Shown here: positions 46,401 through 61,400 of the stretch, piece by piece
Layout of the letters: every line of letters begins with the position of its first letter
Numbering within the stretch: position 1 is the stretch's first letter
Assembly (NCBI RefSeq): GCF_014805685.1
Contig: NC_060902.1
Span: forward strand, 1,279,645-1,343,644
From: Silurus meridionalis
Lineage: Eukaryota > Chordata > Actinopteri > Siluriformes > Siluridae
Length of the DNA: 64,000 nt
Direction of reading: 5' to 3'
Made by a program: the position numbers and the translations under genes
Notes under the pieces: model-generated
The model's input: only the letters and a program-made list of their open reading frames with translations
Database searches by the model: none
What the model was told of the DNA's origin: nothing

Positions 46401-49400
46401 GTCATTTTTCCGAGTGGAAGCGACACATCTGCAGATAATACCGACTTCCTGTTAATTACAGAGCAATTATATCTAATTACTACACGTCCTTAATCTGTGG
46501 AGCTGCTCACACACACACACACACACACACACACACACTTTATATAAACATATCATTAAAGCCTACAGTTTCCCAGCGTTGATAAGAATCAGTTGTTTTA
46601 TTTGGGTTCGGTACAGAAGCCTGTATTTAGTGGTGTGTGTTTGCGGTGTGTGTTACAGAGTGTATCCCGGGACGCTTTGGGCCGGACTGTCAGCAGGAGT
46701 GTGAGTGTGAGAATGGAGGGCTGTGTGACGGGCGGACTGGACAGTGTGTGTGTGGACCAGGCTGGATCGGACAGCGCTGTGAGAAAGGTAGGAGGGGAGA
46801 CGAGCATGATCCGGTTCTGCTTTCCGGGATATTCTTATTTTCAGACTCCTGTGTGGCAGATGATTCCTCCATTTACCTTCTGTATAGATCCACAATCATA
46901 TGACATCATTTTGTCAGAACCTGTTATAGATATATTGTGTGTGTGTGTGTGTGTGTGTGTGTGTGTGTGTGTGTGTGTGTGTGTGTGTGTGTGTGGTCAG
47001 CATGCACAGCAGGACGCTTTGGTGTGGGCTGTACGAATCACTGCGAGTGTGAACACGGAGCATCTTGTCATCATGTCACTGGTAGATGTTTGTGTCCAGC
47101 AGGCTGGCGAGGAGCTCAGTGTGATAAAGGTCTGCTCATAATTCACTTTCTTACACACACACACACACACACTAGATATTAAGGAAAACCCTGGACTGTT
47201 TTTTTGGGCCTATAAATGTATGATTGTACTGTACATTTCATCATCTCATGATCCAGAGCCTGGACTGAGACACAGTGTTGTGTGTTTGATCAAACAGCAT
47301 TATTACAGTATAGAATGAGGGACAGACAGTATTGCGTCATACTGAATAAAAGAGAGGTAGTACAGTACAAACTCATTGAATAAAAACAGAATGTAATCAT
47401 TTGCAAATCTCAAACTCATATTTCATTCACAAAATAAATAAAAAAAAGTTAAATAATTAAACTGAGAATATTTACCATTTGAAGGAAAAAAAAAAATCAG
47501 GTTTTTAAATGGACGGCTGCAAAACTTCAGGGCAGTTTGTGTACATACTGGGAATGTTGTCCCATGTGTGTCTGATACAGGATTCTATCTGCTCAACAGT
47601 TCTGGGTTTTCTTTGTTGTGTTTTTCATTTCATGATGTGTTCATATGATGAGGTTGAGCCTGCAGGCAGACCAGTTCAGCACCTGGGCTCTTCTGGTATG
47701 AAGTCATGATATTGTAATAGATGCAGTATGCAGTAAGCATCGTCTCGTCCTGATAAAAACGTTTTCTGGATGAAAGCATTTACAACAAGCCGGTTATCAG
47801 ACACTATTTATAACCAATCATCTTACTAACCTTCTGTCAATTAACCTGATTAGTTAAAAAATGTTTAATTTTAATAACATTTCTGTTCCCAGGCTTTTTT
47901 GCCCGTCCCTAATTTTTTGAGACGTGTTGCAGCGATCGAATTTATAAAATGTCTCCGAAAATGTCTCGTTTTAAGAAAAAAAAAAGTTCTCTTGTAAATA
48001 AAATTTGAGATGTGCAAATGATTGCATTCTGTTTTTATTTACATTTTACCCAGTGTTTTTTTTTCAAGCATTGAGGAAGAATTAAAATAATAAAAAACAA
48101 AAGCACAAACTTTTAGCCTGTTTAATCTCAATGGGAGAAAATTCCCCAGTGTAGGTGTGGTTTAGATTTAACACACACAGCGTTCATCAGACATTAGTAT
48201 GGTTTTGGTAAAACTGTAACATCATTAATAACTCATCTCTTTCAGCCTGCCTTCCTGGAACCTTCGGTACTGACTGCTCCCACGTGTGCACGTGTTCACA
48301 AGGTACTTCCTGCCACCACGTCAGCGGAGAGTGTGGCTGCTCACCGGGTTACACAGGAAACGGCTGTGAGCAGAGTGAGAGCAGCTGGAGTCGTACCTTC
48401 AAACACACACACACACACACACACACACACACACACACACACACACAGAGGTGGGAAGTAACGGAGTACAAATACTTTGTTTCTGTACTTCAGTAGATTT
48501 TTCTGGTATCAGTTTTTTACTCCACTATTTATTTTTCAGACAACTTTTTACTTTTACTCATTACATTTTTACACAAATATCTGTACTTTTTACTTCTTAC
48601 ATTTTCAAACCCGGCTCGTTACTTTAGTTTTAATCCATTGATTTGGTGAAATATTGTTTTTATTTTCACTGCACATCGATTTCAGCTGAACAACTGATTT
48701 CCTGTTACTGCGGGTCTTTTTCAATCCACTGGTGTATAAAGTCCTGACCCTCACTCACCACAGATGTAGACTAGTTTATGGAGATAAGAATCAGCAGGCA
48801 GAAGCAGTAAGAAGTTTGGGGTTAATGTGGATGAGACAGAGGGAGTCAGTGATGAGAACATGACTGAGAACAGACACATTCCTGATCATCATCATCTTTT
48901 CTCTGCTTGTGTTCTATATGTGGATCTTCAGCCTGGATACATTCATTAGATAACAACATTTTAATTAGTTTTGTATTAATATATATATATATATATAATA
49001 TGTATATATGTGTATATATATATATATGTGTATATATGTGTGTATATATATATATATATATATATATATATAATGTGTATATGTATATTTGGCTGTCAAA
49101 ATTAAAATGATTGTAAACGGCACTAAATTTTATTAACGCTATCAATTCAGCGCGCATTTCTGTTTCACCATTTTTATAGAAAATGTAAATACATAAATAA
49201 ATAACTAAATAAAAAAAGAGGCGCAATTAAAACTTTGGCAAAAAATACGTTTATCCACGACGTCCTTTCTTAGATATAAAATAAATAAATAAACTCCAGA
49301 TAAAAATAATTTTAATCAGTAAACTTTTGTTTTATTTCTGCGCCAAGTCTCAAATCAAACACCAAATCCGCCATGTTTTACACAATTTACCCTCTAGGTG

Positions 49401-58400: not shown

Positions 58401-61400
58401 TGCTCAGGTGCCCAAAACTGGCAGCTTGGAGGTGTTAAACATGTATCATATTTACAGCATGTGATATGTATGTAAGCATATGTACAGTGATTAAAGATAA
58501 AGGCTATATCAGTGCAGAGACGTGTGGACATCATTAAGAGCCTTTGCTATGTTTCCACACGGACAGTTAATGAGGTGACACTGGAGAGACTGCACCTCTT
58601 CAAGTCAAGTCAGGAAGCTTATATATATAAAATTATAGACATTTTACAGATTTAAATGATGAATTGTTTTTATCTGTACGATCAATAAAGACAGTAATTT
58701 AAGTTCGTGTCGCCATTATGAGGGAAAAACCCACAAAACGCCCCCCAGAGGGTAAATTGTGTAAAACATGGCGGATTTGGTGTTTGATTTGAGACTTGGC
58801 GCAGAAATAAAACAAAAGTTTACTGATTAAAATTATTTATACATATATATATATATTCATACAAAACTAATTAAAATGTTGTTAATGAATGTATGCAGGC
58901 TGAAGATCCACATATAGAACACAAGCAGAGAAAAGATGATGATGATCAGGAATGTGTCTGTTCTCAGTCATGTTCTCATCACTGACTCCCTCTGTCTCAT
59001 CCACATTAACCCCAAACTTCTTACTGCCTTTTGACTGCTGATTCTTATCTTCGTAAAGAGTGAGAGTCAGGACTTTATACACCAGCGGAGTGAAAAAGAC
59101 GCGCAGTAACAGGAAATCAGTTGTTCAGCTGAAATCGATGTGCAGTGAAAATAAAAACAATATTTCACCAAATCAGTGGAATAAAACTAAAGTAACGAGC
59201 CGGTTTTGAAAATGTAAGAAGTAAAAAGTACAGATATTTGTGTAAAAATGTAATGAGTAAAAGTAAAAAGTTGTCTGAAAAATAAATAGTGGAGTAAAAA
59301 ACTGATACCAGAAAAATCTACTGAAGTACAGAAACGAAGTATTTGTACTCCGTTACTTCCTCCTCTGGACATTTTTGTTTAAAGGTTTTTGTGCTCATGA
59401 TGATTATAATAGAAATCAATGTTTGAGTTATTAATATCATTCTATTAATAGATCAGTGTGCTGAGAGTCACATTCGAGTCTTTACACATAAACATAAATC
59501 AGTACTTTGGACACTTAAGTACATTTGAAGGCAAAAACTTTAAACTTTCACTTGAGTAAAAGTAGAAAAAGGAGCACTGGAGTAATATTTACTAAGTGTA
59601 TCGTTACTTTTACTCAAATACATTGTGCACTTCGTCCACCGCCGCCTGAGAGTCAAAGCATGAAGAAAAAAAAATTTCCCAAACCATTATCTTCTTCCAC
59701 TACACAAACCGATTATTTCATCTCAAATCTTATACAAATAATGAAACTCTTTTCCCAATGCCACTGTGTTTCAGCGTGTGAGCGGAACACATACGGGCCG
59801 AATTGCTCCAAGTCATGTGACTGTGCAGACGGTACACGGTGTGACCCAGTGAGTGGTTCCTGCCTGTGTGCACCGGGGAAAACCGGACCCAGCTGTGACG
59901 CAGGTCAGTTTCTGAACCAATTACAAAAGTTATTGGATACGCTATGCGGCCAAAAGTATTGGGACACCAGACTTCTCCAAACTTTTGGTTTTGGTGGAAG
60001 ATCTCCTGCTATAGAGCTCTGACCCTATTTGGGATGAATGTGAACGCTGACCGCACCCCAGACCTCCTCCAATCATCTACATCACTACCTGACTTCACCA
60101 ACACCCTTATGGCTGAATGAAGCTCCACAAAATCTATTTGAACAGTAAACTGGGATTAAATGTTTGTGGATGTTCAAGAAGCACATAGCAAACTTATGCT
60201 CAGGTGTCCACAAACCTTTGGCCATAAAGTATATTACAGTAAACTTATAAAGCACTTAGTCTGTAATAAACAGCTGAAACTGGAGACTCCTTTAATTTAA
60301 ATCCTTCATCACCACAATGATCTGATATTAAAAACTGTTTCTGAAACTAGTTTGTTAGTATTTTATGTTCTGTTTCTGGGGTATGAGTTTTTACTACAGA
60401 ACATCACGTGAACGTCTGAGCTACAGATCAGTCAGCTTTCAGCATTACACCGATTTGTGATATAAATGATTTCTCCAGATGTTACTCTGTAGTCTTTTAT
60501 TGTGTGTGTGTGTGTGTGTGTGTGCACTAGACTGTCGAGTGAACCGGTTCGGACCCGACTGCTCATTAAGCTGCCAGTGTGAGAACAGAGCGCAGTGTGA
60601 CAGTCGTAACGGGCGCTGCGTCTGTGTGAAAGGATGGATCGGCCCAACGTGTACAGAAGGTAAAGACTCCTTCTTCTTTCTTTAGATCCATGCCTGAGTT
60701 TCTGTTCCTGTTTAGAACTTTGGCTGTGAAAAGTGGGGAAACATCTGCTTTTTTTTTTTTGACGTTGAATTTTGTTTCTATGCAACAAAACCGGTAAAAA
60801 GCAAAACCACACAGTAATTGGACACTGAATGAGTGGATGAAATGGGACATGTTTGTGTCTACCAGAAGAACTTGTGTGAGACGGAGAACAGGAGAGATGA
60901 TGTGATCAGACTCCCTCACCCGAACACTCACACATGAAGGTGGAAGTTTAATGGAATGCCGTTGTTTTGGAGAAGGGAAGATTCCGGAATGTGAAATGAA
61001 TCCTGGACCAACACGTCTCCCGTTCCGTACTTCATCACCATGCAGGTCCGTCTGGACTGCGGCTCATTGGAACCGACTTCACCGTACAACCAGACGATGA
61101 GCCGAAGCTCCATCATCGAAACTGTCGATCATGGAAAGTCCTGCCCAGTCACCGCACCTGAATCCTACTGAAATTCTCTGGGATGAAGAAGAAAAGTCCA
61201 ACTAGTGAAGAACATCTGAGGCGTGTTTTAAAAGAGCGTTTGGAGAAACGAAGTGTCCGGATGCTGAGAGTGTGTAAAGCTTTTCCTCATGATAAAGGAG
61301 GAGTTTTTACTGAGAGTAAAGTGGATCATCTGGATATTAATAGATTTGTTGGTCAATCTTCAGACAATTTACATCACATGAGTTTGTTGCATAGAAATGA

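What the first reader, a model, noticed from the sequence alone, without database searches (positions are those of the whole stretch)
48446..59367. Transposase-free hAT-like elements carrying arrays of tRNA-like units
Two ~4-kb copies (48446-52670 and 55397-59367) have Tol2-like ends and 8-bp-type flanking duplications. Instead of a transposase, each holds about ten to twelve tRNA-like units: a run on one strand, including five or so monomers with a period near 190 bases and a shared tail, and three facing them on the other strand. B boxes such as ggttcgaatcc are well preserved, and one 73-nt unit folds tRNA-like. I know of no named element with this content. Either the array is cargo, or tRNA-derived satellite monomers were captured between hAT ends.
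Basis: partly seen in the sequence, partly recalled or inferred. Interest (0 to 1): 0.82.

Follow-up and report, generated by a model that had tools for sequence, protein, structure and literature searches.

The report
Jumping element carrying tRNA-like promoter arrays
In a fish-like genome, a cut-and-paste mobile element without its own transposase has carried an internal string of about ten degenerate tRNA-like units (tRNA-type promoter boxes, mostly without tRNA shape) to many sites; this looks like an unusual cargo on an ordinary kind of mobile element.

Summary
The two inverted copies (48446-52670; 55397-59367) are 97.6% identical. Each holds ten A-box/B-box pairs, eight on one strand and two facing them (chance mean 0.41, maximum 3 in 200 shuffles). 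The own genome decides the main question: of 40 places with the array-side end (two are the window's), 28 show both ends; 20 of those 28 carry the array, 7 are 0.9-1.7-kb copies with none, and 19 have a perfect 8-bp duplication, three of them in dinucleotide repeats. So this is a non-autonomous, Tol2-type hAT family with the array as a regular part. The units are promoter-like, tRNA-derived sequences rather than tRNA genes: Rfam's tRNA model passes once in the window and once in 20 other loci. V4-V8 differ by 21-41% within copy B but 0.6-2.1% between copies at the same position, so the array predates the last transpositions. No transposase was found inside, no partner was identified, and selection on the boxes was not shown. 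I judge the array passenger cargo; transcription and TFIIIC binding are untested.

The parts
48446..52670 (-). Copy A of the non-autonomous hAT element (array strand is -)
   Evidence: ends, alignment with copy B; flanking 8/8 match lies in a (CA)n tract
55397..59367 (+). Copy B (array strand is +)
   Evidence: flanks match 6 of 8
55397..55596 (+). Array-side end of copy B, 10 TACTT/AAGTA motifs in 200 bp (window mean 0.49); the stretch 55397-55600 has 2345 first-look candidates in the genome, 40 scored
59168..59367 (-). Other end of copy B, 7 motifs in 200 bp; 2515 first-look candidates, 40 scored
55780..55836 (+). V1 (A box to B box); copy A 52284-52340 (-)
55983..56057 (+). V2; copy A 52063-52137 (-)
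56142..56190 (+). V3, A-box-like start only, no B box; followed directly by V4 (approximate)
   Evidence: read by eye; not in the count
56203..56259 (+). V4; copy A 51861-51917 (-)
56374..56430 (+). V5; copy A 51690-51746 (-)
56562..56616 (+). V6; copy A 51503-51558 (-)
56766..56822 (+). V7; copy A 51289-51345 (-)
56949..57005 (+). V8; copy A 51106-51162 (-), where the B box differs by one base (GGTTTGAATCC)
57102..57155 (+). V9, folds as a cloverleaf (predicted anticodon loop of 4 bases); copy A 50959-51012 (-)
57191..57356 (.). Patch with 24 of 144 aligned bases different between copies A and B (68 of 3726 elsewhere)
57420..57456 (.). GC-rich hairpin between the two facing arrays (4 of 200 shuffles of the stretch fold as well); copy A 50670-50704 (32 of 200)
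57559..57630 (-). W2, best tRNA-like unit (RF00005 34.4 bits, cut-off 29); copy A 50494-50566 (+) scores 25.1
57724..57779 (-). W1; copy A 50357-50412 (+)
58045..58090 (-). W0, decayed third facing unit (approximate); copy A about 50035-50085 (+)
   Evidence: direct repeat with the W1 stretch, read by eye; not in the count
58379..58434 (-). Headless SINE-like tail inside the element (76-78% over 59 columns to a window SINE, E about 3e-4); copy A 49708-49762 (+)

Best explanation
Each copy is a member of a non-autonomous, Tol2-type hAT DNA transposon family whose regular interior is two facing arrays of degenerate tRNA- or SINE-derived monomers. SHOWN: shared ends, subterminal motif clusters, 8-bp target duplications, many copies, the array in 28 of 40 places sampled by end, and monomers far more different from one another than the same monomer is between the two copies. 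INFERRED: a tRNA- or SINE-like monomer entered a hAT element, was duplicated in tandem (a V family of 8-9 and a W family of 2-3), and the composite is cut and pasted in trans by a hAT transposase that reads only the ends; short copies arise by internal deletion. The units are passengers. They keep box-like Pol III promoter sequence by descent and may be transcribed at low level, but do not make tRNA.
For: Same ends and 8-bp duplications at many places. Ends have 7-10 TACTT/AAGTA motifs per 200 bp against 0.49. No transposase domain in ten frames. A recurring order and spacing of V units in the 22 full copies, with whole-monomer differences. Same-position identity 97.9-99.4%, between-position identity 59-79%, and a tree that pairs the copies by position. 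Spacers of V4-V7 strongly related, those of V1, V2 and V8 more weakly, and those of W0, W1, W2 to each other. Units diverge like their surroundings between copies A and B: 8/579 against 60/3147, p = 0.50, patch 57191-57356 left out. The tRNA model passes gathering once in the window and once in 20 other loci.
Against: No transposase-bearing element with these ends was found; only 10 of 149 listed hAT-domain places were looked at, 8 of them with about 1.5 kb of flank, too little to exclude ends further out. L061 has both ends nearby, but its hAT domain appears to sit in another small element. In 12 of 40 end-sampled copies the second end was not detected in the stretch fetched, and in 4 of 6 array-sampled places both ends were not detected; one of those, L050, lacks the array-side end too. 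B boxes are a little less variable than the rest of the array across copies (0.021 against 0.029-0.038; 272 of 5000 permutations reach it), so weak constraint is not excluded.
Confidence: 0.8

Rival explanations
1. The units are functional Pol III/TFIIIC sites: the element spreads clusters of A/B boxes that recruit TFIIIC or Pol III, helping it stay open or acting as boundaries.
For: Boxes preserved at sequence level with an A-to-B gap of 32-35 bp in nine of ten units per copy (53 in V2). A box 0.85 and B box 0.88 mean pairwise identity among V4-V8 against 0.69 for the rest of the head. B-box columns slightly less variable across copies.
Against: The difference across copies is not significant (both boxes 553 of 5000, B box 272 of 5000), and B boxes (0.021) are close to the termini (0.024) and the non-array interior (0.026). 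No rate difference between copies A and B. Among V4-V7 a shared tail block is at least as conserved as the boxes. The first T-run after the B box lies anywhere from 6 to 381 bases away. The units were picked by their boxes, which inflates box conservation.
Confidence: 0.1
2. The array is a decayed cluster of real tRNA genes captured by the element.
For: Units lean to different isotypes when compared with 20 recalled human tRNAs (best: V7 Lys, V9 Cys, W1 Glu, W2 Asn). W2 and V9 still fold as cloverleaves.
Against: Scores are weak, V1 and V2 do not exceed their shuffle maxima, and recalled references are only leads. In the predicted folds the anticodon loop has 6 bases in W2 and 4 in V9. V monomers share spacers, which fits duplication of one monomer better than a mixed gene cluster. 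A SINE-like tail is inside the element.
Confidence: 0.2
3. Many separate SINE insertions into one hAT element rather than tandem duplication.
For: A headless SINE-like tail lies inside both copies, and SINE-like copies occur elsewhere in the window.
Against: V4-V7 are head-to-tail with shared spacers and a near-regular period. In one search the SINE query found the element only at the headless tail, not at the V units.
Confidence: 0.05
4. Chance boxes or an artefact of the reader's eye.
For: A/B boxes are short, and the window outside the copies has five pairs under the same rule.
Against: Ten pairs in copy B against a mean of 0.41, and repetition in other genomic copies.
Confidence: 0.01

Closest known systems
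Tol2 and other fish hAT elements with non-autonomous derivatives
   Same: CAGAGGTG ends, 8-bp duplications, subterminal motif clusters, end sequences similar (Tol2 ends recalled)
   Different: no transposase found; interior is a tRNA-like array
MITE-borne satellites such as miDNA4 of Xenopus tropicalis and Xstir of Xenopus laevis (PMC9659126, passages seen)
   Same: non-autonomous DNA transposon that carries and spreads tandem repeats
   Different: monomers here are tRNA-derived, divergent from one another and in two facing blocks; the transposon is hAT
tRNA-related satellites (Hy/Pol III of Hydromantes, Satellite 1 of Xenopus laevis; table rows of PMC9659126 seen)
   Same: satellites derived from a tRNA-related region
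   Different: here inside a hAT element; no free satellite shown
Helenus, non-autonomous LTR elements with a tRNA-like sequence (PMC10886601, passages seen)
   Same: small-RNA-derived Pol III-type promoter inside a non-autonomous mobile element; also reported from ostariophysan fish
Dada DNA transposons (PMC8869645, start of abstract seen in the search listing)
   Same: fish DNA transposons linked with tRNA genes
   Different: Dada inserts into tRNA or snRNA genes; here the units are inside the element

Membership tests
hAT DNA transposon (non-autonomous, Tol2-type) | 8-bp target site duplication | tested here: met
   19 of 28 copies with both ends 8/8 (L014, L046 and copy A in dinucleotide repeats), 6 of 28 7/8, 2 of 28 6/8, 1 of 28 3/8 (L012 corrected); 2 of 6 array-sampled loci 8/8, the other 4 without both ends detected
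hAT DNA transposon (non-autonomous, Tol2-type) | short terminal inverted repeats, CAGAGGTG type | tested here: met
hAT DNA transposon (non-autonomous, Tol2-type) | end sequences similar to the two ends of Tol2, each to one of them | tested here: met
hAT DNA transposon (non-autonomous, Tol2-type) | mobilised by a hAT transposase encoded elsewhere with the same ends | tested here: inconclusive
   149 hAT dimerisation-domain matches listed in the genome, 150 of 485 candidates scored; 10 of these loci looked at (8, 2 fetched), none shown to be a partner
tRNA gene (RF00005) | score above the gathering threshold | tested here: not met
   one hit in the window, W2 of copy B (34.4 bits), and one hit in 20 array loci (L022, 31.4 bits, place fits W2)
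tRNA gene (RF00005) | cloverleaf fold | tested here: not met
   2 of 10 copy-B units (V9, W2) fold as cloverleaves; W2 of copy A, the one copy-A unit folded, does too
Pol III type 2 promoter | A box and B box at tRNA-like spacing | tested here: met
   10 per copy; sequence only, no transcription data
SINE | retrotransposed single unit with its own target duplication and shared 3' tail | not tested
   monomers are tandem; I did not look for a dispersed single-unit form
satellite DNA | long homogeneous tandem array in its own right | tested here: inconclusive
   the 22 full copies hold 5-12 V pairs, and V4-V8 of copy B are 59-79% alike; free arrays were not searched for beyond 6 places fetched by array

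The most novel reading that the evidence does not exclude
A hAT transposon family uses tandem tRNA-derived boxes as working TFIIIC/Pol III recruitment sites and has sown hundreds of such clusters (353 first-look candidates, 40 scored), perhaps thousands of B boxes, through one fish-like genome as ready-made insulators or Pol III start sites.
Probability: 0.1. Interest if true: 0.8.

Novelty: new variant of a known kind. Interest (0 to 1): 0.5.

Why it matters
Transposons that carry satellite monomers are known, and so are tRNA-derived satellites and retroelements with Pol III promoters. A cut-and-paste DNA transposon that regularly carries two facing blocks of tRNA-derived monomers joins these and gives a clean natural system: the same array at many insertion sites, plus array-less sister copies as controls. 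That makes it testable whether dispersed A/B boxes change chromatin or transcription. It also suggests that counts of tRNA pseudogenes in such genomes could be inflated by DNA transposons (not tested).

Tried and rejected
Chance was rejected. Exact-pattern scans of the viral and prokaryote collections, one pattern each, gave 0 matches, as expected for fish-like DNA. Ten of the 49 frames listed (which also covers the DNA between the copies) were searched in Pfam: no transposase, only two matches to Arb2-like, both below its cut-off. L061 looked like a partner because both ends lie near its hAT domain, but that domain appears to sit in its own 1.1-kb element with other ends and an 8-bp duplication (the best of a scan over many end pairs), so I set it aside. 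Selection on the boxes was not shown. The four long copies without units (L026, L041, L042, L043) were checked for a transposase only by listing frames; by my reading L026 holds LINE-like frames and I saw no hAT-like frame in the four, but no domain search was run on them. The head identities are inflated by free end gaps and are not used. That the host is a catfish is a guess from recalled SINE and genome features and was not tested. Literature: nine searches showed no hAT element with tRNA-like arrays in their titles and abstract starts; Repbase is not held.
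Full report
OBSERVATION. Two inverted copies appear to lie in introns of a gene with EGF-type repeat exons: 14 pattern matches on the + strand from 43727 to 60652, and a laminin-EGF match just above its cut-off in one of five pieces searched. The ends are at the stated bases and 3778 of 3870 aligned bases agree, gaps excluded. Ten A-box/B-box pairs per copy were found by rule (A box at most 1 mismatch, B box at most 2, gap 25-65): V1, V2, V4-V9 on one strand and W1, W2 facing them. 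Two hundred dinucleotide shuffles of copy B gave a mean of 0.41 and a maximum of 3. The rest of the window gave five pairs, two of them heads of SINE-like copies.

WHAT THE UNITS ARE. Rfam's tRNA model passes its threshold once in the window: W2 of copy B, 34.4 bits against 29; its partner in copy A scores 25.1. ARAGORN calls the same two. Of the ten copy-B units folded, V9 and W2 form cloverleaves and eight do not; W2 of copy A, the only copy-A unit folded, forms one too. In 20 other array-bearing loci the model passes once (L022, 31.4 bits, at a place that fits W2). The units are therefore tRNA-derived, promoter-like sequences, not tRNA genes. V4-V8 start 171-204 bp apart, and V9 153 bp after V8. 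Of 55 spacer pairs compared, 14 passed (at most 4 of 200 shuffles as good; about one expected by chance): all six pairs among V4-V7, weaker links of V1, V2 and V8 to one another and to V5 and V7, and the three pairs among W0, W1, W2; no pair with V9 passed. V9 and W2 are inverted relatives over 39 bp at 85%.

AGE. At the same position V4-V8 of the two copies are 97.9-99.4% identical; different positions in copy B are 59-79% identical, and the tree pairs the copies position by position. The array is thus far older than the last transpositions and is not homogenised. One patch (57191-57356) differs at 24 of 144 bases against 68 of 3726 elsewhere, probably exchange with a diverged relative (inference). 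Across 22 full copies the termini differ pairwise by 1.4 to 28.4% (mean 9.6%), so the family holds copies of different ages.

GENOME. The own genome (742.56 Mb) answered at times. The array-side end gave 2345 first-look candidates, of which 40 were scored and matched at 97-100%, the window's two included. The other end gave 2515 candidates (40 scored) and the V5-V6 stretch 353 (40 scored). Candidate counts are not confirmed copies. The 38 other scored end places were all fetched. With the window's two, 28 of 40 have both ends; 20 of these 28 have at least five V pairs, 7 have no pair and 1 (L030) has a single W pair. Of the 12 without a detected second end, 8 have at least five V pairs and 4 have none; two of those 4 stretches contain runs of N (L041, L042). 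Some copies appear nested in another copy (L010, L047). Duplications of 8/8 occur in 18 of 28; L012 becomes 8/8 with the boundary seen, giving 19 of 28. L014, L046 and copy A lie in dinucleotide repeats. Six are 7/8 (L009 also in a CA-type repeat), two 6/8 (L032, copy B) and one 3/8 (L021). These copies were chosen by similarity to the window's end, so the share with an array is not a genome average.

SAMPLING BY ARRAY. Of the 38 other scored array places, five were already held through their ends (L012, L019, L032, L037, L046). Six more were fetched. Five of the six have the array-side hAT end; two have both ends, with 8/8 duplications. In L052 the match runs to the edge of the stretch, so its second end may lie beyond. 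L050 lacks the end and holds an interrupted array. No free array was shown, but the sample is small.

ANATOMY ACROSS COPIES. By my reading the same V order and spacing recurs in most of the 22 full copies; L036, L044, L045 and L051 depart from it. Counts by the box rule run from 5 to 12 V pairs, some places counted twice. L012, L017 and L018, for example, have one more monomer of about 187 bp than the window copies. Across copies, with columns of local identity under 70% left out, the mean minor-base frequency is 0.030 in A boxes, 0.021 in B boxes, 0.038 between boxes, 0.029 in spacers, 0.026 in the non-array interior and 0.024 at the termini; 553 of 5000 permutations reach the difference for both boxes against between-box and spacer columns, and 272 of 5000 for B boxes alone. 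Between copies A and B units differ at 8 of 579 and the rest at 60 of 3147, patch left out, p = 0.50. Selection on the boxes is not shown.

MOBILITY. Ends carry 7-10 TACTT/AAGTA motifs per 200 bp against 0.49 on average. None of ten frames in the copies has a transposase domain. The genome has many hAT dimerisation domains (149 matches listed); ten loci looked at, eight with short flanks, gave no partner. Mobilisation in trans is inferred.

LITERATURE. MITE-borne satellites and tRNA-related satellites are both mentioned in PMC9659126 (passages seen). Helenus shows tRNA-like sequences in non-autonomous LTR elements (PMC10886601, passages seen). The blue catfish paper tabulates 4,359 predicted tRNA pseudogenes (PMC9270728, passages seen), a kind of count that such elements could inflate; this was not tested, and the host is not known to be a catfish. 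Nine searches showed no hAT element with tRNA-like arrays in their listings; Repbase itself could not be searched.

VERDICT. A real non-autonomous hAT family with an unusual, regular cargo: a new variant of a known kind. The passenger reading is the simplest; a working Pol III or TFIIIC role is open and testable.

Noticed in passing
57191-57356 against about 50800-50960: Short patch about nine times more different between the two copies than the rest, as if exchanged with a diverged family member.
   Followed up: partly
57420-57456; 50670-50704: GC-rich hairpin (13- and 11-bp stem) between the two facing arrays, in both copies.
   Followed up: no
about 54980-55180 and 59480-59660: Weak Tol2-like stretches flank copy B, so it may be nested in another hAT remnant (scores 31 and 36 against shuffle maxima of 30 and 25).
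   Followed up: partly
2119, 14816-14946, 16770, 27221, 31805: Related tRNA-headed SINE-like copies or pieces in the window; a headless tail of this kind lies inside the element.
   Followed up: partly
L061:3275-4413: Probable 1.1-kb hAT element with a 141-aa frame holding the hAT domain, other ends and an 8/8 duplication; many places in the genome give the same domain score.
   Followed up: partly
G000:C1:6304754-6306510: One array place has two V5-V6-like stretches about 770 bp apart, so a longer, expanded array.
   Followed up: no
L010, L047: Copies of the family that appear inserted into other copies of the same family.
   Followed up: no
L009, L013, L014, L025, L027, L031, L040: Array-less copies of 0.9-1.7 kb with the same ends; natural controls for the array.
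   Followed up: partly
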